This document shows, in pieces, positions 21,185 to 47,240 of a stretch of 64,000 nucleotides of DNA; the stretch's first letter is position 1; each line of letters opens with the position of its first letter. Origin of the DNA: Apium graveolens. Taxonomy: Eukaryota > Streptophyta > Magnoliopsida > Apiales > Apiaceae. A program made the translations under genes and the position numbers. The stretch is taken from contig NW_027420680.1 of the NCBI RefSeq assembly GCF_009905375.1, positions 1-64,000 of the forward strand, written 5' to 3'. Under the pieces are notes generated by a model. It searched no databases. It was not told the DNA's origin and saw only the letters and a program-made list of their open reading frames with translations.

Positions 21185-24100
21185 TGTGGCGCCCTCCAAA
21201 CCCGGATCAGAAGTTTGGGGTCCAAACAAACACACGCCTTATTTAAAACCTGTTTAAGATAATAATAATATGCAGTGACCCTACTTACCGACTACCACGG
21301 ACCGCAACAGGTTAAAGTATATACACAAGCCACACACACACACTTATATTACAAACGTCCAAATCCAAACTATTCAAACTTACAACTGAATATTAAATAT
21401 CATTACAAACTTTACAAACTTATACTATCCTAAAAGCTATCAGCTAGCTTAACTCGATCAACCTGGACCCCTAACTCTCGCACTGGATTGGGGATCCTCG
21501 CTACCAACATGTTCCTTCTTAACTGGAAAAGAACATAAACAACATCGCATAAATGAGTTAACTAGCTCAGCAAGTCACATTGACAAGACTGAGAATAATG
21601 ATCATCAAGTGAAAAGAGTTAAGGTATCAAGTAAATAACGATTAATGATTTAGAATTGGATATTATATTTATTTAAAAAAAACAAGGTTAGGCTGCTGAT
21701 CAGTCATGCACTGACCCCAAGCAAGGCACACAGCTCTGCTCTAATTACTGGATCTAAGGCACACATTGGCCTAACTTGACCACCAATCTGGTCTCACCAC
21801 AAATCTGGTCCAGAATTTTATAAAATAATCCAATTTTATCATAATAACAGAATAAACAATGTAAAGCAATAAATAGAATCATAAGCAATATTGGATGTCC
21901 AATAATGAGATGGTTTCAATCTTCACAATGAACAATATGGAAATTTCAAAGAATGGCTGTCATGTGGTGAAAGAATTGGATAACAAAAGAATTAAAGTTT
22001 CAAGGTTATAAGGATTTGGTCTTTTAAAGCATAAGGTACAATGGTTTGAATCTGTAAGCAATCTTGATTCAGTGTTCGATATTTAGTTTGTATGTATTTA
22101 TGGAGTAGTATCATATATCCGTGGTTCGTATTTGGGTAATTAACAATCAATGGTTCGGAAAGAATAAGGTTTACCGCTCAAAGATCAATAACTGGAATCA
22201 AGGTTTAGGGTTCAGTGCTTCAAAGCACTTGCAACATAAAACAAAATTATCAATTATCTATAATATATCTCGAGAAAGTTCAGAACACTTGTCTGGTATT
22301 AGCTTGTTGTACTTCACTAACTTCCAATCACAATCTCCTATTCCTCGACTACTTGCTTCCCTTTCCTACACCTTGCCTCTTCTGCTCACATATCATAAGT
22401 ATCTATCAATACTCAACTCATATGATTCTATTCGGTATACACTTCTATCTACCCTTTGTTTTACCCAAATCCGACTAACAGATTGAAAGTTATAGTAAAA
22501 ACAAGTAAACACTGATCACATAGTCCGACAGTCAAACAAACAAGTCACATATAACACATAAAATGTCAAACAATCAATGAAATTTTATTTATAAGGAAGT
22601 CTCGGGTCATAAACAGTCTTTCGGGTATTTAATATGATTTTTAAAATATTTTTCGGAGTCAAAACGGGTCGTTGGATAAATTTTAAAGCAATAAACAGGG
22701 TTCGGTTGGCCAAATCTGGCTTCAAACTAATTTTATAATAATTATCGAGCCTTGAGAACAATTTAAAATAATATTTTAAAGCTCCAAACTATTTTTCAGA
22801 ATTTTTGAATCAATAATAAATAATTAAATCTAATTAAATAATTAAATAAATCAATTAATAATTAATGAAATCAATTAATCAATTAATTTTCGAATTAATT
22901 GACCAATTAACTAATTAATTATTAACTAAAATTAATTAACTAATTAATTCAGATTTATTCTTGAATTAAAAATATTTTTTTTGGAATTAAAATAATAATT
23001 TTTGGGATTTTTATTAATTAAAATGAATTTTTATAATTAAAATAAATAGGAAATATGATTTTTAAACATTTTTAAAACAGGAATCCAAAATATGCAAACT
23101 CTGGAAACCTGGGGGACTAAACTTTTTCTTCCACAAAAGTACAGGGGCCTATTTGCGATTTTGCAAACCCCCGTCGTCGACTCGCCGGAGTGTGGCCGGA
23201 GAACACGATTCTGGCCACCTCAGGCCATCAAACTCTCCAGAATCGAAGTACAGATCACCAGGAACATGTACATACAATCAAAACACATAACCCATTACAG
23301 GATTGGCCGGAAAATGGTCGGGAAATGAAGAACACCAGCGAACTTTCAAAAGACAACTCCGTTCATACTAGGAATCGTCTGATAACATACTATACATGAA
23401 TCGATTTCAAATTTCTAGGGGAACAAAACCCACTATCTCTCAACATCTGATAATCCCTAAATAAAAAACCCCTAAATTCAATCAAGAACATTCAAACGAA
23501 TTATAAACCCTAATTTCTAATTCCGAAAATCAAACTCAATTTTGAACATGTTATTGAACTTCAAATCAGTCATATGACATATCAAAATCATCAGGAAGAC
23601 AACCTCTACAACATGCAAGCATCAAGTCATATAAACAATCATCAGAATAAAAAAATCATAATTTTAATCAAAATAACTCGAAATTAAATAAAAATATATA
23701 AAATCAACCTTTGATTCTGCAGTTCTGAAACTTGGATAATCTGATAGTACTCCTCAAACCCTTCGTTTTGATTACCAGAGCTTTCCAAACGGATATCAAT
23801 AACACCTTGATTTTGTAGTTTGATTCTTGAAAGGTTTATATGAATATAAATATTTTCTCTGGAAAATACTGTTTGCAAATGATTTTCGGTATGAAATAAA
23901 ATACGGTAAAGGTTATTTATAATTACGGAAAATTAATATCCCGTTGGATCATTCCGGATATAAAATAGTACGTTTATTTATTAAAACGGATCCAAACGGT
24001 ACCGGTTTTCGGGATAATTATCCAAATCAGTACAATTTGTATTGCGGTCTTGATCTCAGCGCCTGGTTACACGTATTACGAGGTGATAATTGTAATAGTT

Positions 24101-24602
24101 TAATAAAAAGATCCCATTTATCGATAATACGAGTTTTATTGATTTACCGAAATGATTTTTGTATCGAAACTATTGCGCCGGGACCCGCACAGGACAAACC
24201 GTACGCCGGATCGAAAAAGTCGAAATATGGAAAATGCTCGGAATATTACAATTAGGTTAGGAAGGAGTTCTCGGAAGAGTTTCTGGTTATAAAAACATAA
24301 AAAATGGGTGAAGTCGGCTAGTTCCCGATTATATAAAATAGTTTATAAATACTCGGAAAAAGAAATTATGAAATCCATAAATTTCCTATAAAATCATAAA
24401 TCATCATAAAAATAAATAGGAAGATATGAAAATTATCTATATTTTATTTTGGACATATAAAAATTAAAATACTCAATTTATATTATGTTTAAACATCCAA
24501 ACACATATACCACTTAACAAATAATTCACAGAATCAATACTGAATATGCATAATATTTATTTATTGGCAAAAAAAATTATACGATATATCCTAGATATTA
24601 CA
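21185..24602 (-). repeat. 3' LTR of element F (3418 bp)
   Basis: On the plus strand it runs TGTGGCGCCCTCC to GATATTACA. In element sense it starts TGTAATATC after the polypurine tract. It matches 38332-41610 over its whole length with small indels. It contains the TGAGT...GCTCA hairpin (21554-21569). ORFs in it are not coding. Confidence 0.93.
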
Positions 24603-24614
24603 TCCTTCCCCTTT
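24603..24614 (-). other. Polypurine tract of element F
   Basis: In element sense AAAGGGGAAGGA abuts the 3' LTR start TGTAATATC. Confidence 0.9.
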
Positions 24615-24639: not shown

Positions 24640-25767
24640 CTAAGAAAACAAATGAGGGTTTTTTTCTTTCATATCACTTTCTAACTCCCAGGTTGACTCT
24701 TCAACCTTTGGGTTTCTCACAGTACTCTTACTAACTTTACCACTTTATTTCTTAACACTTTCTCTCTTTCTTCTAGAATCTCTATCGGACTCTCTAATAT
24801 GACAAATCTGCTTGAAGTTCTATTGGCTAGTATTCGATTACATGCCTGGAGTCTAGATTATACTTCTTAAGCATCGATACGTGAAAAACATTGTGAATGT
24901 GCTCCATGTGTGGGGGCAATTCCAACTCGTATGTTACCTTGCCAACACGCTTTAGAATCTCAAAAGGTCCGATATATCTAGCGCTCAGTTTCCCTTTCTT
25001 CCCAAATCTTGTCAATCCTTTCCACGGAGATACTTTTAGTAATACCAGATTTCCTTCTTCGAATTCCATATCTTTCCTTGATTGATCTGCATACTTCCTT
25101 TGACGGTCTTGTGCTGTTATCAATCTCTTCTGGATAATTTGAACAACTTCCTTCGCCTGTTGTACCAATTCAGGTCCAAATACTTTGTGTTCTCCTACTT
25201 CGTCCCAATATACGGGAGATCGACATTTGTATCCATAAAGAGCTTCATAGGGTGGCATCCCAATGCTGGCATGATAACTGTTATTGTAAGCAAATTCTAC
25301 CAAGGGTAAATGCTCGTCCCAACTTCCTTTGAAATCAATAGCACAAACACGTAACATGTCTTCGATTGTCTGGATTGTTCTTTCACTCTGGCCATCCTTC
25401 TGTGGATGGTAAGTCATACTCATATTCAGTCTCATTCCCAAACATTCTTGAAAACTTTTCCAAAATCCCAAATTAAATCTCAGATCTCGATCGGATACGA
25501 TAGACACAGGAATTCCATGACAAACTATGATTTCTTTCAGGTACATATGGACTAACTTGTCTAGTGAAAATCTTTCATTTATAGGCAGAAAATGAGCTGA
25601 CTTGGTAAGTCTGTCCACTATAACCCAAATGGCATCATGATTGGCTTTCGTCCTTGGTAATCCGACTATGAAATCCATGGCAATATGCTCCCACTTTCAC
25701 TCTAGAATCTCTAATGGTTGCAACAATCCACTTGGTCTCTGGTGCTCTGTTTTAACTCTCTGACATG
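24640..25767 (-). pseudogene. pol: Integrase core, C-terminal domain and decayed chromodomain of element F
   Basis: This is the pol part downstream of the element G insertion. The integrase core shows the catalytic residues in VIVDRLTKS, VSDRD and GQSER. The C-terminal region has the GPFEILKRVGKVTYELELP and HNVFHVSMLK signatures, then a stop just after VIEY. Beyond it, remnants of a chromodomain are readable (NPKVEESTWELES) up to TAG 24640-24642, with stops before it. Chromodomains direct integration to heterochromatin in chromoviruses. A TGA near 25700 (CGA-type or similar change) also breaks the frame just before the core. The zinc-binding part is at 33772-33900. Confidence 0.9.
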
Positions 25768-27437
25768 TGAAAGGAATATGTCCTAAGTCCAATCATGTAT
25801 TAGGATTTAGGAATAACTTTTATGTAATCTGTTTTGATTTCATTGATATTAATAAAGACTTGTTTTGTTTTTATTACGGGCTTTATCTATTTAAGTGTTT
25901 AAATAAGATATACCATAGTTTAGAGTAAAGCTTTTTATGGATTATGATGAGATCATAATAGTGAGACCTAAAAAAATGATAACTCTAAACTTAAATAGCT
26001 CCTGGTCAGAGGATTACTAACTGGTAATGAATAATCTGCAAAGATCGGTACATACTATGCTTGCTTCATTATGAAGGATGTCTGTTCTCATAGACATTTA
26101 TGTGGTGACACTATAGCTAGTATGTAGGTGCTTATTATAGAATAAGTTCACTGAATATGACTCGCACAGCTGAACAACTGATGGAGTTCACTCACGTGTC
26201 AGCAGTTGTTCACATAGTGATAGTTGTACAAGTATCCTTAGACTTGAGGTCATTATAGTCATCTTGTGTACACTGAACTATGCTTTGGTTTAGTTCTTAG
26301 TCTCCAGGGATAATTATTAGGGCTCTTTTGGGTATAGGAATTTATACACGAAGATAGTGTATGATCAATAAAGGATCTACCCCTTCCAGTGAAGGAAGCG
26401 AATGTTCAAGGCTGATCCACTTATGCTAGTTCAGGAATCTCTGGCCAGAGTGAATGAAATTAGAAAGGAGTTTCTAATTTGTATAGAACTACGCATAGTA
26501 AATGGTAAGCAAGTGATTGAATTAGATAGGCTTGACACGAGATCCATGCCTTGTATTTAATCGGAACATTGTAGGGTAGAAGGAGTTTATTGTACGGTAA
26601 CTATTCACAGAATAGGTTATTGGTATTCTAAGCAGTGAATTCATATTATCCGGATAGTCGCGATATGCTGAGAAGTATCCCTCACGATGTAGAATAAATG
26701 TGATTAATTAATTAATCATATTTAATAAATTAGAGAATTTATATAAATAATGATAAAATAGTTTTATTATTATTTATTTCTACTACCGGCTTAATATTGA
26801 ACCTACAGGGTCACACCATAAAAAGAGAATGATTTAATGGTGGAGGAATTAATTAATAATGGCTAATAATTATTTATTTGTGAAATAAATAATTAATTGG
26901 AAAATTTAATAATTGATTAAATGAGATTTAATTGATTATAAATTAATTAAGAAAAGTTCTTAATATTATTAATTAAAGGATTTAATTTTTGGAAATTAAA
27001 TCAAGAGAGAGAATTATTTATAAAGTGTTTAGAAAAAGGATTAATGATTAAAAGGTGTTTTAATTATTTATGAGAATAATAAATGGGATAATAATAATAA
27101 TATTTATAGGAAAATTTCAGCTGAAAATTTTGCCTATAAATACGCTATTATAGACCCTAATTTTATTGCAACCTCGAAACCCGAAAACCCAAAAAGTTTG
27201 GAAAACCCAATTCTCTCCACCTTCTTCCTCCTCCTTAACATCGTTTTCTTGGTGGATACCGGTGGAGTGCTTCATACTTGAGGAGCAACTGCTAAGGATC
27301 TCTGATCGTTGTCTCCGAATTATTTTAAAAGGTTAGATTCGATCCCTCGAATTTTTATTCACGATTTATATGATTTTATTTGGATTTTGTATGTGTAAAA
27401 GTGTTTTGCCATGCCCCCGCTGCGTTAAAATCCAACA
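25768..27437 (+). repeat. 5' LTR of element G (1670 bp)
   Basis: Starts TGAAAGGAATATGTCC, ends AAATCCAACA, followed by the primer site. A TATAAATA box lies at 27135-27142. Short AT-rich parts (26690-27100) carry long palindromic TTAATTAATTAA stretches. Confidence 0.95.
27135..27142 (+). promoter_or_regulatory. TATA box of the element G LTR
   Basis: TATAAATA, a consensus plant TATA box, about 300 bp before the LTR end. Just upstream, AAAATTTCAGCTGAAAATTT is an imperfect palindrome centred on CAGCTG. Confidence 0.65.
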
Positions 27438-27438
27438 A

Positions 27439-27450
27439 TGGTATCAGAGC
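27439..27450 (+). other. Primer-binding site of element G
   Basis: TGGTATCAGAGC, initiator Met-tRNA type, one base after the 5' LTR. Confidence 0.92.
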
Positions 27451-27884
27451 ATAGGTTGTATGCATATAGATCTGTGGTAAAAATTTCAGAATTTTATATG
27501 CTTGTATGAATTAATTATGATTTTTACAAGTTATATCTTGGTTTAATTTTGTCTGATGAAAAATCATTTCTCAGAATAATTTTAAATGTTGATCTGGGTT
27601 CTACAAGTGTTGTAGATCGTCTCGGTATTTTTTTCATAATTTTATGATGTATAGATTTTTTATTATGAATTTTTGAATTTCTTGTAATTAAATTCGTAAT
27701 TAAATAATTATATATATATGTGAATTGTTTGTATGTATATATCTATTATCAATCTGTACATCTGCTGTACTATCTGACTGGCAGCACGGAAGCAAAGAGA
27801 TAGAGAAAAGTCAGGTGTCGGGCGGCTCATTCTCCGAGGAAAGCAAAAGGCGGCTACTGAAAAACAAAAACAAAAAAAATAGGG

Positions 27885-28024
27885 GTGTAACGCATTCCGG
27901 GAATGCGTTACACACCTGTGGCGCATTCACGGAATGCGTTACACCCTTTAATGGCTTAAAAGGGGTGTAACGCATCACCGGAATGCGTTACAGGGCTTGT
28001 AATGCGTTCCTGTAATGCGTTACA
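27885..28024 (+). repeat. Cluster of palindromic GTAACGCATTCC repeats in the leader of G
   Basis: Unit 1 (27885-27913) is GTGTAACGCATTCC and its exact complement around one central G. Unit 2 (27917-27944) and unit 3 (27965-27991) are imperfect versions. Unit 4 (27998-28024) has the two halves (TAATGCGTT) in direct orientation. All lie between primer site and gag in non-coding DNA. Confidence 0.9.
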
Positions 28025-28706
28025 GCCCGACTGTCCATATTAAAATTGATTTTCTGGGAGTTTTGTAACTCCGTTTTGGGCGTGTAATATACTGTTGGAT
28101 TCGTTTTTCCAAGACGGATCTAATGGAGTGATCAATTTTAGTTTATATAAAAGTTTTGAACTGTTTATCTTTCCATGAAGTGTTTTAAAGCTGTTTTTGA
28201 CCGTTTGAATTGATTTTAAATGCTTCTTGTGATACATAGAGATGTATATTGCTTGTTCTAATGTGCTAGATGATGTAACATGACTACCTTGATGTTTATT
28301 CATGTTGATATATGTGATATATGCTTAGTTTATCATGCGATGATCGATTTAGGTGAACTTGAATGAACATAAGGCGTTTGTTAGACAACCTAGTATAGTG
28401 AAATTGTTTCATAACCTTAATAACAATATTATGAATACAATCATGAGATTCTTGTGTTTATGAAACACGTAATTGAATATGAATTTTCGATATGAGAGAA
28501 AGGATGATTCTGTCAACAACAAATTTCTATCTGTAAGAAAGGGTTATTAAGTGACGCCTCTTGACAATGCTCCACCCGATCTGGGAATCATCTGATTATT
28601 GATTATTGATTTAAAATAATTAATTTAAAAGGAAGAATCTCTTTATAATATGATTATGATTGTAACGTAATATAATCCCTCTAAAATTAAATAATATCAA
28701 GTAGTA

Positions 28707-28752
28707 ATTGGCCAATGACACAACGGGCTTGTGTCGGTCATAGCCTTCCAAT
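28707..28752 (+). other. Hairpin without the shared loop motif, leader of G
   Basis: GACACAA (28717-28723) and TTGTGTC (28729-28735) pair around CGGGC, with ATTGG/CCAAT at the base. It directly precedes the four related stem-loops. Confidence 0.55.
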
Positions 28753-28766
28753 ATGATAGAAAGTAG

Positions 28767-28829
28767 TTCTTATTTTTGAATCATTGTCGTTTCGTGCCAC
28801 AGCCGAGGGCTTTGATTTCGAAATAAGAA
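28767..28829 (+). other. Leader stem-loop 1 of element G
   Basis: A 17-nt arm (28767-28783) pairs with 28813-28829: 14 Watson-Crick, two wobble, one mismatch. The loop contains CGTGCCACAGCCGAGGG (28793-28809), the motif shared with the next three stem-loops. Confidence 0.75.
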
Positions 28830-28854
28830 ATACTTGTCTATTACATAGAGATGT

Positions 28855-28926
28855 GTACATTGAATAAGAATCTAAAGGTCGTTACGTGCCACAGCCGTGG
28901 GCCTTTGGGGACTGATTCAATTGTAC
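28855..28926 (+). other. Leader stem-loop 2 of element G
   Basis: The arm starting GTACATTGAAT (28855) pairs with 28902-28926, about 18 Watson-Crick pairs with one bulge and an internal loop. The loop has CGTGCCACAGCCGTGGG (28885-28901). Confidence 0.75.
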
Positions 28927-28937
28927 GGAATGTTGGG

Positions 28938-29003
28938 TTAGACTTGACTTAGAATATTGAGTTTGTCGTGCCACAGCCGTGACTCAATTATTCAAGAGGC
29001 TAA
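28938..29003 (+). other. Leader stem-loop 3 of element G
   Basis: TTAGAATATTGAGT (28949-28962) pairs with ACTCAATTATTCAA (28982-28995) with two single-base bulges. The loop has CGTGCCACAGCCGTG (28967-28981). Confidence 0.72.
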
Positions 29004-29050
29004 AGTTTGATTAGGGAATAACATTAGATGTAATTGACAAGAGTTGTCTG

Positions 29051-29109
29051 CCTATTAAACATTACATGGCGTTTCGTGCCACATCCAGGGTTGTGTAATG
29101 GAATGTAGG
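29051..29109 (+). other. Leader stem-loop 4 of element G
   Basis: CCTA and CATTACATGG pair with TTGTGTAATG and TAGG across an internal loop. The loop has CGTGCCACATCCAGGG (29075-29090), a slightly changed motif. Confidence 0.68.
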
Positions 29110-29289
29110 ATCCCTATTCCCACTAGCATTATGAATGCTTAATTTTTCATGTAGGGGTTGAATAAATTAGGAAAACTAGTGTGAGCCACTTATGAATAAA
29201 GACCCGATTCATATAGTGTTTTGAAATGAAATTGAATATTTGCTAAGTGTTGTTATGTGTTTATCATTTACAGATTTACTTTGTACGTT

Positions 29290-30552
29290 ATGTCTTCTGC
29301 ACTATCACTCAGGAGCATACTAGATGCTCACAAATTGACTGGTCCTAATTATGCTGACTGGCTTCAAAACTTGAGAATTGTTCTCAGGATTGAGAAGCTG
29401 GAATACGTGATTGACTCACCTAAGCCTTCTGAACCTGCTAGTGATGCACATAATGATGAACATGTTGTGTATCGTAGGTGGATAGATGATGCAAATGTTG
29501 CTCAATGCATCATGCTAGCTTCCATAAACATTGAGCTACAGAAGCAACATGAGCATATGGATGCTCACACTATCCTCATGCATCTACAAGAGTTGTATGA
29601 TGTGGCAGGGAGGACAGCTCGATATGAGATATCGAAGGAGCTGTTCGGTTATAGGATGTCTGAGGGATCATCTGTGAATGACCATGTACTTAAGATGATC
29701 AATTTGATTGAACGTCTTGGACAACTTGGTTTTTCCATGGATGGGGAGCTGAGCTAAGACTTGGTCTTGCAATCGCTTCCGAGTTCGTTCTCGCAGTTTG
29801 TTGTGAACTTTCACATGAATAAGTTGGATGTCAGCCTGCCTGAACTCCACAACATGTTGAAGACCGCGGAATCGAATTTTCCCCCTAAGAAGAGTTCTGT
29901 TCTTCTAATTGGTGAAGGTTCCAATCCTAAGAAAAGGAAGAGGAACCCTTCCAAGAAGAAGAAAGTAGGTGAGAAAACGCCGGTTCCACCAAAAGCTGAA
30001 GACCCCAAGAGCAAAGTTGTTTGCTTTCACTGTAACAAGGTGGGGCACTGGAAGAGGAACTGCAAGGTTTATCTTGCAGAATTGAAGTAGAAGAAGGGTA
30101 GTGAGACCACCGCTTTTGATTCAGGTATGTTCATGATAGAAATGAATATGTCATTAAATCAAATTTCTACTTGGGTATTAGATACCGCCTGTGGTTCTCA
30201 AATCTGCAATTTATTGCAGGGACCAAGGAGAAGTAGGACTCTTGAGGAAGAGGAGGTGATTCTATTGATGGGAAATGGAGCAAGAGTTGCTGCTAAAGAT
30301 GTAGAATCATTTCATTTACATAGGCCTACGGGCAAGACTATTGTTTTAAATAATTGTTATTTTGTTCCCTCGATTGTGAGGAATATTATTCCCATGTTAG
30401 ACTTGGCTGGATTTTCATTTATTATTGAGAATAATGAATGTTCTATTCTTAGAGATAATATTCTTTATGGACATGGTACTTTAAATAATGGTCTGTATGT
30501 ATGTGACATAATTTATTTCAGATTGAACAAACTAATAAAAGAAAAGGGATGA
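29290..30552 (+). pseudogene. gag-pol: gag and protease of element G, broken by two stops
   Basis: One frame runs from ATG 29290 (MSSALSLRS) to TGA 30550-30552, with stops at 29755 (TAA) and 30088 (TAG). Gag: the copia-type capsid region (GPNYADWLQNLRIVL, LQELYDVAGRTARYE, VNDHVLKMI, VLQSLPSS), a basic Lys/Arg stretch, and a zinc knuckle CFHCNKVGHWKRNC (30022-30063). Protease: LDTACGSQIC from 30178, where the family usually has DTG, so the active-site glycine is replaced by alanine. The frame is otherwise well preserved, in keeping with the low LTR divergence. The Gag type is one of the common plant copia lineages; I do not assign it further. Confidence 0.88.
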
Positions 30553-32084
30553 TGAAAATCTCACTTTATAGTGGCATTGTAGTCTCCATTTAGTAAACAT
30601 GGAGAGAGGGCTGCAAATTTGCTAGGAATGGTACACACAGATGTATGTGGACCAATGTCTACGCAAGCCATGGGTGGATTTTCATACTTCATTACTTTCA
30701 TGGATAATAGATCTAGATTCGGATATGTGTTTGATGAAACACAAGTCTGAAGCCTTTGAAAAGTTCAAAGAGTATAAGTATGAAGTGGAGAAACAAACCA
30801 AACATAGTATTATAATTCTTCGATTAGATCGAGGTGGTGAATACTTGAATGGAGAGTTTCTGGATTATCTCAAAGTAAATGGTATAGTCTCCCAGTGGAC
30901 TCCTCCAGATTAGTATCTGAAAGGAGATATCGAACTTTGTTAGACATAGTTCGGTCCATGATGAGCTATGCAAATCTTCCAGTATTCCTATGGGGTTATG
31001 CATTGGAAACCTCAGCATATTTACTGAATAAGGTGCCTTCCAAAATCTGTTCCTCAAACTTCGTATGAGATATGGAAAGAAAGGAAACCGAGTCTTAAAC
31101 ACGTTAAGATTTGGGGATGTCCAGCTTATGTCAAGAAAGTTGACCCAGATAAGATGGAATATCGATCCGTAAAATGTGGTTTTGTGGGATATCCTAAAGA
31201 GACTTTAGGGTATTACTTTTACACCGATCATCGGGTGTTTGTCTCCAGACATGCTACCTTCTTGGAAAAGGAGTTTATCCTTGAAGGAAACAGTGGGAGC
31301 AAAATTGAACTTGATGAAGTTCAAGAAGCACAAACTACTACGGATCAAGTGGAAACACCTGTTCTGACTAAACAACCTTTTGTGGAACAGCCCATTCATA
31401 GATCAGGGAGAGTGTCTCGCCAACCTGAGAGGTATTATGGCCTTGTCAATGAGAATGACAATGAGTTGTCAATCATTGATGATGACGACCCTGTGACCTA
31501 TAATGAGGCTATGAGTAGTGTTGACTCAGAGAAATGGCATAGTGCCATGAAATCCAGAATGGAATCTATGTATACGGTATACAAAAGATAGATTATAGCA
31601 GATGGCCAGGTGGAGACCTACAAGGCCAGGCTTGTGGCAAAAGGATTCAAACAAAGGCAATGGATTGACTTTGATGAAACCTTTTACCTGTAGCCCTGTT
31701 AAAATCAGTTCGGATTTTGCTTGCGATTGCTGCTTACTACGACTATGAAATCTGGCAAATGGCCAGATGGTTTTCTTTCCAAGAGAAATGAAAACCTAGT
31801 GTGTAAGCTACTGCGAACCATATGTGGTTTAATGCAAGCTTCTCGAAAGATGGAACATTCGTTTTGATGAGACAATCAAAGAGTTTGATTTTATCAAAAA
31901 CAAAGATGAACCATGGGTCTACAAAAGTGTTAGTGGGAGCGCGATAACATTTCTTGTATTGTATTGAAATAGAGTTGACACACATAACAACATAGCAGAC
32001 CCACTCACAAAGCTACTTTCTGAAAGTCACTTTGATCGTCATAAAGATAAGATGGGTATTAGATACCAGAGTGATTGGCTTTAG
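30553..32084 (+). pseudogene. pol: Integrase and RT remnants of element G, RNase H deleted
   Basis: Seen: integrase core start (HTDVCGPM near 30630), DRGGEYLNGEF (about 30826-30860), VSERRYRTLLD after a small frame-shifting deletion near 30912, and the end of the integrase region (CGFVGYPKETLGYYFY, 31165-31220). RT is reduced to its start (YKARLVAKGFKQRQ near 31618) and a few blocks up to about 31960; the catalytic YVDD block and RNase H are missing. The text jumps near 31970 to the usual copia tail (IADPLTKLL) and stops at TAG 32082-32084. The missing part is about 1.5-2 kb compared with full copia pol (inferred). Confidence 0.85.
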
Positions 32085-32086
32085 TA

Positions 32087-32098
32087 CAAGTGGGAGAT
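32087..32098 (+). other. Polypurine tract of element G
   Basis: CAAGTGGGAGAT immediately before the 3' LTR start TGAAAG. Confidence 0.85.
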
Positions 32099-33766
32099 TG
32101 AAAGAAATATGTCCTAAGTCCAATCATGTATTAGGATTTAGGAATAACTTTTATGTAATCTGTTTTGATTTCATTGATATTAATAAAGACTTATTTCGTT
32201 TTTATTACGGGCTTTATCTATTTAAGTGTTTAAATAAGATATACCATAGTTTAGAGTAAAGCTTTTTATGGATTATGATGAGATCATAATAGTGAGACCT
32301 AAAAAGATGATAACTCTAAACTTAAATAGCTCCTGGTCATAGGATTACTAACTGGTAATTAATAATCTGCAAAGTTCGGTACATACTATGCTTGCTTCAT
32401 TATGAAGGATGTCTGTTCTCATAGACATTTGTATGGTGACACTATAGCTAGTATGTAGGTGCTTATTATAGAATAAGTTCACTGAATATGACTCGCACAG
32501 CTGAACAACTGATGGAGTTCACTCACGTGTCAGCAGTTGTTCACATAGTGATAGTTATACAAGTATCCTTAGACTTGAGGTCATCATAGTCATCTTGTGT
32601 ACACTGAACTATGCTTTGGTTTAGTTCTTAGTCTCCAGGGCCAATTATTAGGGCTCTTCTGGGTATAGGAATTTGTACACGAAGATAGTGTATGAATAAT
32701 AAAGGATCTACCCCTTCCAGTGAAGGAAGCGAATGTTCAAGGCTGATCCACTTATGCTAGTTCAGGAATCTCTGGCCAGAGTGAATGAAATTAGAAAGGA
32801 GTTTCTAATTTGCATAGAACTACGCATAGTAAATGGTAAGCAAGTGATTGAATTAGATAGGCTTGACACGAGATCCATGCGTTGTATTTAATCGGAACAT
32901 TGTAGGGTAGAAGGAGTTTATTGTACGGTAACTATTCACTGAATAGGTTATTAGTATTCTAAGCAGTGAATTCATATTATCCGGATAGTCGCGATATGCT
33001 GAGAAGTATCCCTCACGATGTAGAATAAATGTGATTAATTAATTAATCATATTTAATAAATTAGAGAATTTATATAAATAATGATAAAATAGTTTTATTA
33101 TTATTTATTTCTACTACCGGCTTAATATTGAACCTACAGGGTCACGCCATAAAAAGAGAATGACTTAATGGTGGAGGAATTAATTAATAATGGCTAATAA
33201 TTATTTATTTGTGAAATAAATAATTAATTGGCAAATTTAATAATTGATTAAATGAGATTTAATTGATTATAAATTAATTAAGAAAAGTTCTTAATATTAT
33301 TAATTAAAGGATTTAATTTTTGGAAATTAAATCAAGAGAGAGAATTATTTCTAAAGTGTTTAGAAAAAAGATTAATGATTAAAAGGTGTTTTAATTATTA
33401 ATGAGAATAATAAATGGGATAATAATAATAATATTTATGGGAAAATTTCAGCTGAAAATTTTGCCTATAAATACACTATTATAGACCCTAATTTTATTCC
33501 AACCTCGAAACCCGAAAACCGAAAAAGTTTGGAAAACCCAATTCTCTCCACCTTCTTCCTCCTCAACATCGTTTTCTTGGTGGATACCAGTGGATTGCTT
33601 CACACTTGAGGAGCAACTGCTAAGGATCTCTGATCGTTGTCTCCGAATTATTTTAAAAGGTTAGATTCGATCCGTCGAATTTTTATTCACGATTTATATG
33701 CTTTTATTTGGATTTTGTATGTGTAAAAGTGTTTTGCCATGCCCCCGCTGCGTTAAAAATCCAACA
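32099..33766 (+). repeat. 3' LTR of element G (1668 bp)
   Basis: Near-identical to 25768-27437; differences are single substitutions, one 3-bp indel (CTT) and one A insertion near the end. Ends AATCCAACA, then the ACATG duplication. Confidence 0.95.
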
Positions 33767-33771
33767 ACATG

Positions 33772-36121
33772 TATAACATCTGCTAACCCATTCTACAATC
33801 TCCCGCTTCAGATCTGGCCACCAATAATTTTCCTTTAAATCTATGTACATCTTGGTACTTCCTGGATGGATTGAATACCTTGAATTATGAGCTTTCTGTA
33901 AAATTTCATTTTTCAACTCCATTACTGGTGGAATCCAAATTCTAGAAGAAAACCTAAGAATACCTTGATCGTCCTTTTGTATGCACAATTCCTCACCTAC
34001 CAAACGATTAATGTCCTGATCCATTATCTCTTCTTGACACTTCCTTTTCTTTTCTAATAACTCCGGCTGGAAAGTCATACTATACACTTTTGCTTCATCA
34101 GGCTTGCAAACTCTAATTTACAATTCCAGTTTCTGAAATTCCTTGTATATTTCGTCGGGTACCGATAGCACATTCAACTTTTCTTTCCGACTTAACGCGT
34201 CTGCCACAACATTTGCTTTACCGGGATGATAGTTAATTGTGCAGTCGTAATCCTTAATCAACTCTAACCATCTTCTATGTCTCATATTAAGCTCCTTTTG
34301 TTTGAATATATACTTCAAGCTCTTGTGATCCGTATAAATCTCGCATTTTTCTCCATATAGATAATGTCTCCAAATCTATAAAGCGAATACTATAGCCGTT
34401 AACTCCAAATCATGAGTAGGATACTTCTGTTCGTGTGGTTTCAATTGCCTTGACGCATACGCAATAACCTTATCGCGCTGCATCAGAACGCATCCGAGTC
34501 TTTTATGAGAAGCATCGCTATAGATTACGAAATTCCCTTGATCATTTGGAAGTGAAAAAATAGGTGATGTAATTAATCTATGCTTCAATTCCTGAAAACA
34601 TTCTTCACATTTGTCATTCCATATAAACTTTTCATTCTACCGTGTAAGCTTTGTCAATGGTATTGCAATCCTTGAGAAATTTTGAACAAATCGACGATAA
34701 TATCCCGCTAATCCCAAGAAACTTCTTACCTCTGTCGGTGTCTTCGGCCTTTCCCAATTTATAATTGCTTTAATCTTCACCGGGTCCACTTTGATCCCTT
34801 CATTACTGACTATGTATCCTAAGAACTGAACTTCTTATAGCCAAAACTCACACTTCGAGAATTTAGCATATAACTTCTTCTTCCTTAAAATCTCCAAAGC
34901 TGTCCTCAAATATTCTGCATGATCCTCTTCTGTCTTTGAATAAATCAAAATGTGATCTATAAACATAATAACAAACTTTTCCAGGTATTCCTTGAAAATT
35001 CTGTTCATCAGGTCCATGAATGCTGTCGGGGCATTAGTTAATCCAAAAGACATTACTAAAAATTCATAATGTCCATACCTTGTTCTGAAAGCTGTCTTTG
35101 GTATATCTTCTGGCTTAATCTTTAGCTGGTGATATCCCGATCTCAAATCGATCTTGGAGAAGTACTTGGCTCCTTTTAGTTGGTCGAACAAATCATCAAT
35201 TCTAGGTAACGGATACTTGTTCTTGATAGTAAGCTTGTTAAGCTCTCGATAGTCCATGCACCGTCTCATGCTTCCATCCTTTTTTTTGACAAATAGCACT
35301 GGTGCACCCCACGGGGATACACTGGGTCTGATTACTCCTTTCTCTAACAGCTCTAGCAATTGCTTTTCTAGTTCCTTCATCTCAACGGGCGCCATTCTAT
35401 ACGGGGCCTTGGACACTGGTTCCGTTCCAGGTGCTAAGTCGATCGCAAACTCAATTTCTCTATCTAGAGGAAGTCCTGCTAATTTATCGGGAAATACGTC
35501 TGGAAATTCATTGATTACCGGAATATCCTCAAGTTTTGCTGGCTCCTGAGTTCTATCAATCACATATGCAACGAAATGCTCGCATCCTTGTCGTAGTAAC
35601 TTTTTAGCTTGAATCATCGTTAAGAACTTCTTTGCTTGTTTCTGGCCCTTAAACATTACTATCCTCTCGTCTGGCGTCTTCACCATTACCTTTTTATTTC
35701 GACAATCTATCTGGGCATCGTGCTTAGATAACCAATCCATTCTTAAGATAATGTCAAACTCTCCTAGCTTAAATGGTATCAAGTCCACACAAAACTTACT
35801 ACTAGAAATCTCAATTTCATAATTCCCACAAACTTGATTGACAGATACATGTTCTTGATTTGCTAATTCCACAGTCATTATTTCATTTAACTACTCAACT
35901 GAATACTTTAACTTACTAACAAAATCTTGAGAAATAAACGATCGAGTTGCTCCCGAATCTATTAACACTTTGGCACATAAAGAATTCACATTAAGCGTAC
36001 CTGCCACGACATCAGTATCATGGATAGCGTCCTTCATAGAAATATCAAAAACTCTAGCCCTTGGAGTCTCATTCACTGCTGGAGTAGATCCCATAATTCT
36101 TAATGCATTACTGATTGGGGC
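33772..36121 (-). pseudogene. pol: pol of element F: protease, RT, RNase H, integrase zinc finger; broken
   Basis: One frame continuous with the second half of gag. Protease: LIDSGATRSF (active-site D near 35957). RT (about 35420-34840): [28 protein letters not shown] and [10 protein letters not shown] are clear, but the active site reads FIDHILIY, with His for the second Asp. RNase H (about 34590-34190): [31 protein letters not shown] and NVVADALSR. Integrase zinc region: HNSRYSIHPG and the CYTC pair, where element G is inserted. Stops at about 35888 (before MTVELANQ), 34832 (after FWL), 34640, 34373 and 34115. Downstream part at 24640-25767. Confidence 0.92.
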
Positions 36122-38315: not shown

Positions 38316-38327
38316 GCTCTGATACCA
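38316..38327 (-). other. Primer-binding site of element F
   Basis: In element sense TGGTATCAGAGC, four bases after the 5' LTR (which ends at 38332 on the plus strand). Confidence 0.9.
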
Positions 38328-38331
38328 AACC

Positions 38332-41300
38332 TATGGCGCCCTCCAAACTCGGGTCAGAAGTTTGGGGACCACACACACACGCACGTTATTTAAAACCTGC
38401 TTAAGATAATAATAATATGCAGTGACCCTACTTACCGACTACCACGGACCGCAACAGGTTAAAGTATATACATAAGCCACACACACACTAATATTACAAA
38501 CGTCCAAATACCAATTATTCAAACTTACAACTGAATATTAAATATCATTACAAACTTTACAAACTTAAACTATCCCAAAAGCTGTCAGCTAGCTTAACTC
38601 GATCAACCTGGACCCCTAACTCTCGCACTGGATTGGGGATCCTCGCTACCAACAGGTTCCTTCTTAACTGGAAAAGAACATAAACAACATCGCATAAATG
38701 AGCTAACTAGCTCAGTAAGTCCCATTGACAAGACTGAGAATAATGATCATCAAGTGAAAAGAGTTAAGGTATCAAGTGAACAACGATTAATGATTTAGAA
38801 TTGTATATTATATTTTTATTTAAAAAAAAAACAAGGTTAGGCTGCTGATCAGTTACACACTAACCCCGAGCAAGGCACACAGCTCTGCTCTAATTACTGG
38901 ATCCAAGGCACACATTGGCCTAACTTGACCACCAATCTGGTCTGACCACAAATCTGGTCCATAATTTTATAAAACAATCTAATTCTATGATAATAACAGA
39001 ATAAACAATGTAAAGTAATAAATAGAATCATAAGCAACATTGGATGTCCAATAATGAGATGGTTTCAATCTTCACAAGGAACAATATGGCAATTTCAAAG
39101 AATGGTTGTTAGGTGGTGAAAGAATTGGATAACAAAAGAATTAAAGTTTCAAGGTTATAAGGATTTGGTCTTTTAAAGCATAAGATACAATGGTTTGAAT
39201 CTGTAAGCAATCTTGACTCAGTGTTCGGTATTTAGTTTGTATGTATTTGTGGAGTAGTATCATATATCTGTGGTTCGTAATTGGGTAATTAACAATCAAT
39301 GGTTCAGAAAGAATAAGGTTTACGGCTCAAAGATAAATAACTGGAATCAAGGTTTAGGGTTCAGTGCTTCAAAGCACTTTTAATATAAAACAGGATTATC
39401 AATTATCTACAATATATCTCGAGAAAGTTCATAACACTTGCTTGGTATTAGCTTGTTGTACTTCACTAATGTCCAATCACAATCTCCTATTCCTCGACTA
39501 CTTGCTTCCCTTTCCTACGCCTTGCCTCTTCTGTTCACATATCATAAGTATCTATCAATACTCAACTCATATGATTCTATTCGGTATACACTTCTATCTA
39601 CCCATCGTTTTACCCAAATCCGACTAACGGATTGAAAGTTATACTAAAAACAAGTAAACACTGGTCACATAGTCCGACAGTCAAACAAACAAGTCATATA
39701 TAACACATAACATATCAAACAATTTTAAAACATTTTTGGGAGTTAAAACGAGTCGTTGGAAAAATTTTAAAGTAATAAACAAGATTCGGTTGTCCAAATC
39801 TGGCTTCAAAATAATTTTATAATAATTATTGAGCCTTGAGAACAATTTAAAATAATATTTTAAAGCTTGAAACTATTTTTCAAAATTTTTAAATCAATAA
39901 TAAATAATTAAATCTAATTAAATAATTAATTAAAATCAATTATTAATTAATTAAATCAATTAATCAATTAATTTTCGAATTAATTGACCAATTAACTAAT
40001 TAATTACTAACTAAAATTAATTAACTAATTAATTCAGATTTATTTTTGAATTAAAAATAATTTTTTTAGAATTAAAATAATAATTTTTCGAATTTTTATT
40101 AATTAAAATGAATTTTTAAAATTAAAATAAATAGAAAACATGATTCTTAAATATTTTTAAAACAGGAATCCAAAATATGCAAACTCTGGAAACCTGGGGG
40201 ACTAAATGGTTTCTTCCCCAAAAGTCCAGGGGCTTGTTTGCAATTTTGCAAACCCCCGTCGTCGACTCGCCGAAGTGTGGCCGAAGAACACAATTCCAGG
40301 CCATCAAACTCTCCAGAATCGAAGTACAGATCACCAGGAACATGTACATACAATCAAAACACACAACCCATTACAGGATTGGTCGGAAAATGGCCGGGAA
40401 ATGAAGAGCACCGGCGAACTTTCAAAAGACAACTCCGTTCAAACTAGGAATCGTCTGATAACATATTATACATGAATCGATTGCAAATTTCAAGGGGAAC
40501 AAAACCCACTATCTCTCAACATTGGATAATCCCTAAATAAGAAACCCCTAAATTCAATTAAGAACATTCAAATGAATTATAAACCCTAATTTCTAATTCT
40601 GAAAATCAAACTCAATTTTGAACATATTATTGAACTCCAAATCAGTCATATGACATATCAAAATCATCAGGAAGACAAGCTCTACAACATGTAAGCATCA
40701 AATCATTCAAACAATCATCCGAACAAAAATTCATAATTTTAATCAAAATAATTCAAAATTAAATAAAAATATATAAAATCAACCTTTGATTCTGCAGTTC
40801 TGAAACTTGGATAATCTGATAGTACTCCTCAAACCTTTCGTTTTGATTACCAGAGCTTTCCAAACGGATATCAATAACACCTTGATTTTGTAGTTTGATT
40901 CTTGAAAGGTTTATATGAATATAAATATTTTCTCTGGAAAATACTGTTTATAAATGATTTTCGGTACGAAATAAAATACGGTAAAGGTTATTTATAATTA
41001 CGAAAAATAGTACGTTTATTTATTAAAACGGATCCAAACGGTACCGGTTTTCAGAATAATTATCCAAATCAGTACAATTTATACTGCGGCATTGGTCTCT
41101 GCGCCTGGTTACACGTATTACGAGGTGATAATTGTAATAGTTTGGTAAAAAGATCCCGTTTATAGAAAATACGAGTTTTATTGATTTACCGAAACAAATT
41201 TTGTATCGAAAATATTGCGCCTGGACCCGCACAGGACAAACCGTATGCCGGATCGAAAAAGTCGAAACATGGAAAATGCTCGGAAGAGTTTCGGGTTATA

Positions 41301-41610
41301 AAAACGTAAAAACGGGTGAAGTCGGCTGGTTCCCGATTATATAAAATAGTTTATAAATACTCGGAAAAAGAAATTATTAAATCCATAAATTTCCTATAAA
41401 ATCATAAATCATCATAAAAATAAATAGGAAGATATGATAATTATCTATATTTTATTTTGGACATATAAAAATTAAAATACTCAATTTATATTATGTTTAA
41501 ACATCCAAACACATATACCACTTAACAAATAATTCACAGAATCAATACTGAATATGCATAATATTTATTTATTGGCAAAAATAATTACACGATATATCCC
41601 AGATATTACA
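38332..41610 (-). repeat. 5' LTR of element F (3279 bp)
   Basis: On the plus strand TATGGCGCCCTCC to CAGATATTACA. It matches 21185-24602 but lacks short segments near 39720 and 41000 (around the GATCATTCC stretch of the other copy). It contains a perfect TGAGC-TAACTA-GCTCA hairpin (38699-38714). Its outer end abuts TGTGA, the target duplication. Confidence 0.93.
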
Positions 41611-42159
41611 TGTGACATCAAGGAGTTTTCTGACATAAACCTTCACTTAGATGAATTGGAAGAAGTTAGAGAAATTGATGCTCACAGACATCTCCCAGAA
41701 AGGCTGGTGTTCAAATACAAGGGAAGAAGAGAGATCATAAGGCCACTTCACATGATTCTTTTAGAAAGCCAACACGTGCTAATAAAAGTGTACTCTTCAT
41801 TCAAAAAGAACTTTGGATACAATGTGACAACAAGAAGATTAGTTCTAAAGAATATTGAGGAGCTGAGGAGTAATAGAGCCAAAGATGCACTACCAAAGAC
41901 TCTGTCAATTCTTTTCACAGGAAAGAGAGTGCATCTAAGGCCCTATTGGCTGATGGAATTCAGGGATGAAAAAGGAGTTAGAAGATTCTTCAGATTGGAG
42001 GACCAATTGAGTATCTCTAGAAATGAGACTCTTTTGGAAATGCAAGAAATGGTAGATCTCTCGAGAGTTGATGAACTTGAATTCCACAGACAACTCCAGA
42101 ATCAAATTGAAGAAAACAACAGAAGGCTTGGGAAGAAATCCAGACAATCAAAAAAATAA
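41611..42159 (+). pseudogene. Third ORF of element E, 3' part (C-terminal domain)
   Basis: Continuation of 17350-21184 after element F; the target duplication TGTGA is its first five bases. This stretch of about 180 codons is open to TAA 42157-42159. It holds the conserved domain: LDELEEVREI, LPERLVFKYKG, WLMEFRDEKGVRRFFRLEDQL, and a Gln/Glu/Lys-rich end. The corresponding part of element A is 535-1108. Confidence 0.85.
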
Positions 42160-45907: not shown

Positions 45908-46602
45908 CTAGACCTGCAGTATCTCTCTTACATAGCTGCTAATGGAGTCCGGACTAGGTTCCCTTGGGCCGTTCTCCGGGGCGATGCTATCCGGCTTGTC
46001 TTTTCTTTTTGTGAGTGTCTTGGGTTTCAGCTAACCCGGGATACTTTGATGATTTATAAAACCATGAACATGCTAAGATGTATGTGTTTACCTTATAGTC
46101 CGGACTTTGCTTTATTTTCTCACTTTGTGTATGTTTTTGTAAAGTACTTGTTCTTATTGTTATATTTCTTTGTTTTTTGACAGGCTTGCCCCACTACAAT
46201 ACGGACATGTCTTCCTCTGCATACAATGATGCTTTGTAAAGGCTAGGGACTACCTTCAAGATGAAGAAGAAGGCTCCTGTTGTGGGTTCCGGATCCAATC
46301 CTCTTCCGGAGGAAGGATCTCAGTGTAATGTTGTTACAAAGACGGATTCTGATGAGAAAAATAGGGGTCCGGGGAAGGATGTTGAATTAGAGGCCGAAGA
46401 TGAGTTTGAGAATCTGGAGAAGATTGAACCCTTAGGAGATGTTCCTAAGATGATATTGTACGGAGGAGGAAGAGGCTTCGGAGTGTTGGTGCGAAACCTC
46501 CCCTGGTGGAGAAGTCTCACGTTGTTGTTGGTGCTGAGCCCGGGAGAGATAAGGGAAAGGGAGACCGGAGGAGGAGCGCCCGGAAAGGAGTGTTTTCTAT
46601 AG
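45908..46602 (+). pseudogene. Antisense ORF of Tat element I, two exons, truncated by H
   Basis: Exon 1 (45908-46079) is open and reads GVRTRFPWAVLRGDAIRLV and CLGFQLT; the start is lost to element H. A GTATGT donor at 46080 and a TTGACAG acceptor ending at 46183 define a 104-bp intron, and joining keeps the frame into exon 2 (46184-46602), which has one stop (TAA 46237-46239) and ends at TAG 46600-46602. Exon 2 is rich in Lys, Glu and Gly. It lies antisense to the Tat element, downstream of pol, where Tat elements are known to carry extra antisense ORFs. The exon 1 sequence resembles the plant gypsy-associated family called Transposase_28 (my impression, not searched). Function unknown. Confidence 0.55.
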
Positions 46603-46616
46603 TCCGGGCTCACAAT

Positions 46617-47110
46617 TGGTCCATACTAGTGGATGCTTTTGCTTTAGAAAATAATTATAAGTTAACATGTTTGCTCTAGTCCAGATCCACCCTTGGTCTG
46701 GACTAGTGGATGATATTTTACTTTGAAAATTAATTCTAAGTAAATATGTTTGTTCTAGTCCAGTCCCATTATTGGTCTGGACTAGTGGATGCTTTTTTCC
46801 TTAGAAAATAATTCTAAGTAAATATGTTTGCTCTATTCCAGGCCCATTATTGGTCCGGACTAGTGGATGATATCTTACTTAGAAAATTAATTCTAAGTAA
46901 ATATGTTTATTCTAGTCAAGGCCCATTATTGGTCCGGATTAGTGGATGTTTTTTTCCTTAGAAAATAATTCTAAGTAAATATGTTTGCTCTAGTCCAGGC
47001 CCATTATTGGTTCGGACTAGTGGATTATGTTTTACTTAGAAAATTAATTCTAAGAAAATATGTTTGTTCTAGTCCAGGCCCATTATTAGTCCGGACTAGT
47101 GGATGCTTTT
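46617..47110. repeat. Minisatellite of two alternating 79-bp monomers in element I
   Basis: About six and a half monomers. CTAGTCCAG-type starts fall near 46676, 46755, 46833, 46912, 46990 and 47070. Monomers alternate: one has GGATGATATNTTACTT, the other GGATGCTTTTTTCCTT, giving a 158-bp higher-order unit. Each holds an imperfect palindrome, CTAGTCC...GGACTAG. It lies between pol and the antisense ORF of Tat element I, the region known in Tat/Ogre elements to generate satellites. Confidence 0.88.
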
Positions 47111-47240
47111 TATATACAAATCTAAGGAAATATAATATAGAGAAATTCTTTTCATTAATATGAAACTTCATTCATACAAGCTATAAATTTGTTGCTTGCC
47201 ATATAGGCTACACGATTTTGGTTGCTTTGTTTGCTTCTTT

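What the first reader, a model, noticed from the sequence alone, without database searches (positions are those of the whole stretch)
28767..29109. Four consecutive stem-loops with one shared loop motif and different, compensating stems in a copia leader
Between primer site and gag of element G, the motif CGTGCCACAGCCG(A/T)GG occurs four times (28793, 28885, 28967, 29075). Each copy lies in the loop of a hairpin whose two arms are complementary to each other but unrelated to the arms of the other three. Repeats that keep the loop and change paired stems indicate selection on RNA structure rather than on sequence. A further hairpin with another loop (28707-28752) precedes them. Possible roles: RNA packaging, dimerisation, translation of the long leader, or binding of Gag or a host protein. 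I know of no named element with this layout.
Basis: partly seen in the sequence, partly recalled or inferred. Interest (0 to 1): 0.82.

Follow-up and report, generated by a model that had tools for sequence, protein, structure and literature searches.

The report
Repeated leader hairpins in copia elements
A mobile element, probably of celery, carries just ahead of its first gene four RNA hairpins with the same tip and unrelated but self-matching stems; related elements carry similar sets, which suggests a repeated docking site that marks the element's unspliced genome RNA.

Summary
The core observation holds, with corrections. Four hairpins (28757-29100) share the apex CGTGCCACAGCCG; the fourth copy here has two changes. 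Each 5' arm pairs best with its own 3' arm (best of 24 pairings), and no other repeat pair found in a 64 kb scan comes near. The sense RNA is favoured: 35 G-U pairs, no A-C mismatches. In the same genome (probably celery) a family about 20% diverged keeps the array: the apex barely changes (2/52 columns), arms change faster than spacers (33/158 against 22/184), and 19 of 27 changed pairs still pair, six with both sides changed. A stricter tree-aware test supports only 1 of 95 pairs. Two other copia leaders (L010; celery L124) have four hairpins with other shared apices; L009 has two. New inference: the leader looks like an intron, with a donor in the LTR before the primer site and an acceptor just before gag, so the hairpins would exist only in unspliced genomic RNA. 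Best reading: a multi-copy packaging or selection signal bound by Gag. Structure is well supported; splicing and function are inferred.

The parts
25768..27438 (+). 5' LTR of the copia element
   Evidence: 97.6% identical to 32099-33767
27332..27337 (+). candidate splice donor aaaag|GTTAGA in the LTR, 107 nt before the PBS (junction 27331/27332)
   Evidence: best of 142 GT sites between 27101 and 29320 by a recalled plant weight matrix; a donor of score 3 or more at this place in 21 of 23 rows that cover it
27439..27450 (+). primer binding site TGGTATCAGAGC
   Evidence: directly after the LTR
28757..28839 (+). hairpin 1, apex core 28793-28805
28856..28925 (+). hairpin 2, apex core 28885-28897
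28952..28993 (+). hairpin 3, apex core 28967-28979
29060..29100 (+). hairpin 4, apex core 29075-29087 (two changes in this copy; canonical in 10 of 20 sister copies)
29260..29273 (+). candidate splice acceptor tttatcatttacag, ending 16 nt before the gag ATG
   Evidence: rank 2 of 99 AG sites; atttacag kept in 24 of 27 rows with a PBS; an AG ends 0-16 nt before the gag ATG in the five leaders compared: window, L009, L010, L011, L124
29290..29754 (+). N-terminal part of gag (Retrotran_gag_2), ended by a stop in this copy
   Evidence: Pfam PF14223 E 7.4e-07; best homologue 96% identical
32099..33767 (+). 3' LTR

Best explanation
The four hairpins are a repeated RNA recognition element of a plant Ty1/copia lineage. 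Each presents the same small apex, C-G-(bulged U)-G-C-(YACA)-G-C-C-G closed in most copies by a W-W' pair, on an exchangeable stem. The leader that holds them is most likely an intron whose donor lies in the LTR upstream of the primer binding site and whose acceptor lies just before the gag ATG. Spliced RNA, free of the roughly 59 upstream AUGs, of the primer site and of the hairpins, would be the message for Gag-Pol. Unspliced RNA, with primer site and hairpins, would be the genome. The array would let Gag (its zinc-knuckle part) or a partner bind the unspliced RNA in several places and select it for packaging. Shown: four structures, + strand polarity, apex conservation with changing stems, similar arrays with other apices in other leaders. 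Inferred: splicing (from sites and composition only) and Gag binding and packaging (from position and by analogy).
For: Structure: own partner best of 24; top four among 134 repeat pairs, 21 of them with paired arms; 0, 0, 9, 16 of 5000 shuffles. Polarity: 35 G-U, 187 Watson-Crick, 0 A-C over 11 hairpins; + strand lower in energy in 9 of 11; + lower in 65/65, 65/66, 52/66, 61/66 aligned copies. Conservation: 95 pairs compared between family A (21 rows) and B (29 of 30 loci): 68 unchanged, 13 changed on one side and paired, 6 on both sides and paired, 8 broken, against 1-2 both-side-paired with slid partners; columns that differ: core 2/52, paired outside the core 33/158, spacer 22/184. At least 6 pairs enclose the core in 65/65, 66/66, 59/66, 65/66 copies. 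The pair that closes the apex is U-A in hairpin 1 (65/66), 3 (44/66) and 4 (40/66, U-G in 26) but A-U in hairpin 2 (66/66). Generality: L010 four hairpins, own partners best of 24, and 6 of 6 variable pairs kept among three tandem copies; L124 four hairpins, own partners best of 24; L009 two hairpins. Intron: donor rank 1/142, acceptor rank 2/99, no ATG in the presumed first exon and 59 in the leader, leader GC 33.9% against 42.8% and 43.4% in presumed exon and gag; donor in 21 of 23 covering rows, atttacag in 24 of 27 rows with a PBS.
Against: The tree-aware covariation test supports only 1 of 95 pairs at E<=0.05 (next 0.053); most change is one split between two families. Eight of 27 changed pairs are broken, three of them in hairpin 3, where no changed pair is kept. 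Hairpin 4 of this window is not better than shuffles by total energy. Hairpin 3 has U.U instead of the apex-closing pair in 22 of 66 rows, the window included. In single folds the exact four apex pairs appear in only 42/65, 45/66, 41/66 and 32/66 copies. In L124 the minus strand of one of four hairpins folds better. No RNA data: splicing, packaging and Gag binding are untested; the splice scores rest on a recalled weight matrix and an assumed start site. A higher-scoring acceptor lies at 29154. L009 shows no primer site, and its candidate donor at 52 ranks only 8th of 147. The published account for BARE separates RNA pools by start site, cap and tail, not by a leader intron (PMC3735527, passages).
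Confidence: 0.5

Rival explanations
1. The array regulates splicing, retention or export of the unspliced RNA by binding a host protein; packaging is not its job.
For: It lies inside the presumed intron, 173-516 nt upstream of the acceptor (coordinates). PMC12786077 (passages) recalls cis elements of 160-285 nt with 10-nt motifs that recruit plant export factors to intronless RNAs.
Against: A host protein would be expected to favour one apex, yet L010, L124 and the window have different apices; this is weak evidence.
Confidence: 0.22
2. The hairpins are by-products of reverse-transcriptase template switching, which repairs stems, without selection for RNA structure.
For: Retroelements pass through reverse transcription each cycle, and such switching can make stems match (own knowledge, no call). 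Other inverted repeats are common in this leader.
Against: Stem repair gives Watson-Crick pairs on both strands, whereas 35 G-U and no A-C are seen; the apex is far more conserved than the arms; separate leaders have separate apices.
Confidence: 0.08
3. The array helps translation of the unspliced leader (internal entry or ribosome shunt).
For: Leader of about 1.85 kb with 59 ATGs.
Against: A strong donor and acceptor would remove the whole leader; the array ends 190 nt before the gag ATG.
Confidence: 0.07
4. The hairpins dimerise genomic RNA by kissing loops.
For: Dimerisation hairpins are usual in retroelement leaders (own knowledge).
Against: The loop words tested are not self-complementary, and the only 7-nt complement in the element (27916) lies in a stretch without a blastn match in 22 of 31 other loci (one of the 22, L086, does not cover it).
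Confidence: 0.05
5. The long stems are precursors of small RNAs.
For: Hairpin 1 has 34 pairs.
Against: It does not explain a shared apex on different stems; no Rfam family reaches its gathering score in 25700-33800.
Confidence: 0.04

Closest known systems
Dispersed packaging signals of RNA viruses (PMC6281560, outline and abstract; PMC6475782, search listing)
   Different: Here clustered in about 350 nt of a plant retroelement leader, probably inside an intron; no binding shown.
Retroviral psi between splice donor and gag (own knowledge)
   Same: Lies between a donor and gag, so only unspliced RNA would carry it.
   Different: Here the spliced RNA would encode Gag-Pol itself and would also lose the primer site; one apex is repeated four times.
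Ty1 Psi and 5' pseudoknot (PMC8396678, passages)
   Same: Packaging region of a copia-superfamily element, read by Gag.
   Different: Ty1's preferred Gag site is a pseudoknot near the 5' end; the paper's main text does not contain the word intron, and no repeated-hairpin array is in the passages seen.
BARE dimerisation and packaging signals and distinct RNA pools (PMC3735527, passages)
   Same: Plant copia with an untranslated leader and separate RNA pools for translation and packaging.
   Different: BARE's reported intron is 104 nt at the end of gag; its pools differ by start site, cap and tail.
Conserved non-coding motifs of Sireviruses (PMC2829016, passages)
   Same: Repeated non-coding motifs in plant copia elements.
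   Different: Those lie in LTRs, upstream of env, at the PPT and at the LTR/PBS junction; no leader hairpin array in the passages seen.

Membership tests
Ty1/copia LTR retrotransposon | LTR pair, tRNA-Met type PBS, copia-type Gag | tested here: met
   LTRs 97.6% identical, PBS TGGTATCAGAGC (PMC2829016 passages name the Met tRNA), PF14223, zf-CCHC, Pol_BBD and SH3_retrovirus domains. The lineage within copia was not tested.
Structural RNA under selection | arms complementary beyond chance, own partner preferred | tested here: met
Structural RNA under selection | statistically supported covariation given the tree | tested here: inconclusive
   1 of 95 pairs at E<=0.05; 6 both-side changes against 1-2 with slid partners
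Retroviral-type packaging signal (psi) | located on unspliced RNA only | tested here: inconclusive
   Donor and acceptor predicted and conserved; no RNA evidence; the junction search of the genome did not complete
Retroviral-type packaging signal (psi) | Gag binding and requirement for packaging | not testable with these tools
   needs binding and particle assays
Dispersed packaging signals | several stem-loops sharing a recognition motif, otherwise different | tested here: met
Dispersed packaging signals | motif binds the capsid protein | not testable with these tools
   needs binding assays
Dimerisation (kissing-loop) hairpin | self-complementary loop | tested here: not met
Described Rfam family | match at gathering score | tested here: not met
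   12 weak matches in 25700-33800, none at its gathering score

The most novel reading that the evidence does not exclude
A widespread but unnamed class of RNA: plant copia elements keep arrays of about four recognition hairpins inside a leader intron. Each family has its own apex, copied on unrelated stems, as an address label read by the element's own Gag. The arrays would keep related families from packaging each other's RNA, and splicing would separate message from genome.
Probability: 0.35. Interest if true: 0.82.

Novelty: new variant of a known kind. Interest (0 to 1): 0.68.

Why it matters
[quoted passage not shown] A defined array that would be present only on unspliced RNA gives a testable answer in elements that are very numerous in one crop genome (24,071 gag candidates in the first look, not all scored). 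Arrays with family-specific apices could also explain how coexisting families stay apart, and repeated hairpins could help to find leaders that have no other sequence similarity.

Tried and rejected
Led nowhere: motif-pair scan of viral contigs, 0 hits; single-motif scan, 8 contigs L001-L008 with one match each, not followed; gag searches of viral contigs, none confirmed; L010 apex in viral contigs, 0; Rfam, nothing at threshold; literature search for the motif letters, 6 papers, none on retroelements in the 5 listed. P0016 as query in the own genome and four further leaders (L120-L123) brought the same array again, not a new one.

Rejected: motif in an open loop (it forms a sub-hairpin); an alternative apex CCAC/GUGG (by inspection it fits hairpins 2 and 3 but not 1 and 4, whereas the chosen apex-closing pair covaries), although L010 and L124 apices do show CCAC..GUGG-like pairing; kissing loops and loop pairing to 27916; hairpin at 28707-28752 as a fifth member; cruciform DNA (G-U asymmetry). 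A jointly changed loop base (T in all four hairpins of five leaders) is not general: 43 of 45 aligned rows of the diverged sets have mixed bases.

Full report
WHAT IS THERE. The element spans 25768-33767: LTRs 25768-27438 and 32099-33767 are 97.6% identical, the primer site TGGTATCAGAGC follows the 5' LTR at 27439, and a copia-type gag starts at 29290 and meets a stop after 155 codons. The leader is about 1.85 kb. Contig lengths in the own genome equal those of Apium graveolens records in the protein search, so the source is very probably celery (inference).

THE HAIRPINS. The core CGTGCCACAGCCG is exact at 28793, 28885 and 28967, with two mismatches at 29075. Each lies at the tip of a hairpin. 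The common apex is a short helix, a bulged U, and GC-(YACA)-GC. A 4x4 test of 34-nt arms gives duplex energies of -24.4, -26.8, -20.3 and -21.2 kcal/mol for own partners and -6.4 to -15.4 for foreign ones; own partners are the best of 24 assignments. Shuffled arms reach the observed energy in 0, 0, 9 and 16 of 5000 trials. A + strand scan of the 64 kb for exact repeats of 11 nt or more, 45-600 nt apart, found 134 pairs, 21 of them with both own arms at -12 kcal/mol or below; the top four own-versus-swapped gains are these hairpins (28.8, 27.2, 25.1, 16.7), next comes 7.8. Limits: 4.0-5.5% of 1358 other leader positions have equally strong flanks; by total energy hairpin 4 is not better than shuffles (28 of 200; 27 of 300).

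WHICH STRAND. Across 11 hairpins (four here, the rejected one at 28708, four of L010, two of L009) the + strand folds have 187 Watson-Crick and 35 G-U pairs and no 1x1 A-C mismatch. The + strand is lower in energy than its complement in 9 of the 11; the exceptions are the rejected hairpin and L009's second. In L124 it is lower in 3 of 4. In the aligned celery copies + is lower in 65/65, 65/66, 52/66 and 61/66. This points to the sense RNA.

COPIES IN THE SAME GENOME. A search with the block gave 40 scored matches out of 621 candidates, 98-100% identical, one of them the window itself. In 20 others, fetched, hairpin 4 has the canonical core in 10; the window's combination of two changes is in none of the 20. 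With the canonical core, hairpin 4 takes the same apex fold as hairpins 1 and 2. A gag 71% identical to the window's (P0004) found a second family (150 of 24,071 candidates scored, 30 loci cut out): 29 of the 30 align to 28700-29290 at 78-81%, L043 and L063 only in part. Motif sites are at the same spacing, but within two mismatches of the window's core all four are found in only 2 of 30 (L044, L053), since this family has T at the loop base and many decayed copies. Comparing the commonest letters of family A (21 rows) and family B (29 rows) over 95 pairs: 68 unchanged, 13 changed on one side and still paired, 6 changed on both sides and still paired, 8 broken. Sliding the 3' partner by 1-3 columns gives 1-2 both-side-paired changes. 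Columns that differ: core 2/52, paired outside the core 33/158, other hairpin positions 10/27, spacer 22/184. So the tip is nearly fixed while the arms change faster than the spacers and mostly stay paired. For 66 sequences (5 loci with short or no matches dropped: L043, L060, L063, L082, L086), a tree-aware null of my own, modelled on R-scape, gives 1 of 95 pairs at E<=0.05 (29068-29092) and one at 0.053; 44 of 87,476 other column pairs pass the same threshold, about the 46 expected from it (expectation reckoned by me). With one deep split the test has little power, but the strict result is weak and is reported as such. Folded one by one, at least 6 pairs enclose the core in 65/65, 66/66, 59/66 and 65/66 copies; the exact four apex pairs are in the MFE in 42/65, 45/66, 41/66 and 32/66 (one hairpin-1 row with a gap in the core left out). 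Most core changes are G>A or C>T (133 of 179 differences), as expected of silenced copies. The pair that closes the apex is U-A in hairpin 1 (65/66), A-U in hairpin 2 (66/66), U-A in hairpin 3 (44/66, otherwise U.U) and U-A or U-G in hairpin 4 (40 and 26 of 66).

OTHER FAMILIES. A scan of GTDB contigs with the gag alignment returned three plant-like copia pieces, of 8 pattern matches, in records named for bacteria, read here as plant DNA contamination (inference). L010 has its primer site at 624 and gag at 2336, and between them four copies of CGGCCATCCCTTCGGTGGAG, the first one base shorter (1762, 1856, 1927, 2161), each at the tip of a hairpin; own partners are best of 24 (-63.9 against -57.4); among three tandem copies 6 of 6 variable pairs (of 22) stay paired, one with both sides changed. 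L009 has two hairpins with loop CAAACGTTG on different stems, own -9.2 and -8.7, swapped -5.4 and -3.2. In celery, gags 67-70% identical to P0073 mark another family; the one leader I could fetch (L124) has four hairpins with a third apex, CACCCATCGTGGC-like, at 426, 705, 794 and 866, own partners best of 24 (-47.3 against -38.6). One copy is not a family survey. L011's contig starts too close to gag to show a leader. The array thus recurs, with other letters, in a similar place: about 90-590 nt before gag in L010, L124 and the window, and about 1.8-2 kb before gag in L009.

THE LEADER AS INTRON. With a plant weight matrix recalled from memory, the best donor between 27101 and 29320 is at 27331/27332 (aaaag|GTTAGATT; rank 1 of 142), upstream of the primer site; the acceptor tttacag ending at 29273 is rank 2 of 99 and ends 16 nt before the gag ATG; a better-scoring acceptor lies at 29154. 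The presumed first exon (start assumed by me downstream of a TATA-like box) has no ATG, the leader 59. In L010 the LTR donor is rank 1 of 144 and the acceptor before gag rank 5 of 159; the presumed exon has no ATG, the leader 53. In L009 the pre-gag acceptor is rank 1 of 147, but no primer site was found and the candidate donor at 52 is only 8th of 147. L011 and L124 also have an AG ending 0 and 6 nt before the gag ATG (not scored). Of 32 rows checked in the window's lineage (window, L013-L019, L070-L089, L120-L123; L086 holds gag only), 27 have a recognisable primer site, 23 of these cover the donor site, and 21 of 23 have a donor of score 3 or more at -105 to -115, ranked 1-3; L082 and L088 do not. 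Of the 27, 24 keep atttacag before gag. L087 has a different donor sequence at nearly the same place. No RNA evidence was available. PMC12786077 (passages) states that plant LTR elements generally lack introns, with Ogre and EVADE as exceptions; PMC7765848 (passages and section 20) reports single introns in copia GAG RNAs, whose described effect is to end the ORF after GAG; PMC7730604 (passages) reports spliced short GAG isoforms in sunflower. I found no paper on a leader intron or a hairpin array of this kind in the held library; searches.

MECHANISM. If the leader is spliced out, the message loses primer site, upstream AUGs and array, and the unspliced genome keeps all three. Four equal tips on interchangeable stems fit a protein that reads the tip and gains from several copies, as in the dispersed packaging signals of RNA viruses (PMC6281560, abstract). 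The element encodes a zinc-knuckle Gag. The loop base Y is C in all four hairpins of 20 of 21 A rows, and T in all four of L087 and L089 (94 and 96% identical to the window's block) and of L120, L121 and L123: a joint change that fits a common reader or exchange between copies. Against a general rule, 43 of 45 rows of the diverged sets are mixed, mostly TCTC or TCTT. Packaging is the likeliest role; splicing or export control is the main rival. Neither was tested.

VERDICT.

Noticed in passing
window 27886-28030: Another leader array: TGTAACGCATTCC-type inverted repeats (here the stems repeat). It matched in 9 of 31 other loci examined, so it looks specific to part of the family.
   Followed up: partly
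L087, L089, L120, L121, L123 leaders: The first loop base is T in all four hairpins, where 20 of 21 rows of the window's family have C in all four.
   Followed up: partly
window 21187-24603 and 38334-41611: A repeat pair 91-94% identical with a minus-strand primer site at 38316: the element studied here seems nested in a larger LTR element.
   Followed up: no
window 11708: A further element with this primer site and an ATG about 60 nt after it; no pair from there is among the 14 best of the hairpin scan.
   Followed up: partly
window 46591-47133: Tandem array with a period of about 78 nt.
   Followed up: no
L009, L010, L011: Bacterial genome records (Geminicoccus, Streptomyces, Labilibacter) hold contigs with plant-type copia gag, probably contamination.
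   Followed up: partly
L087: The LTR end before the primer site has a different donor sequence at nearly the same distance, again the best-scoring donor of the locus.
   Followed up: no
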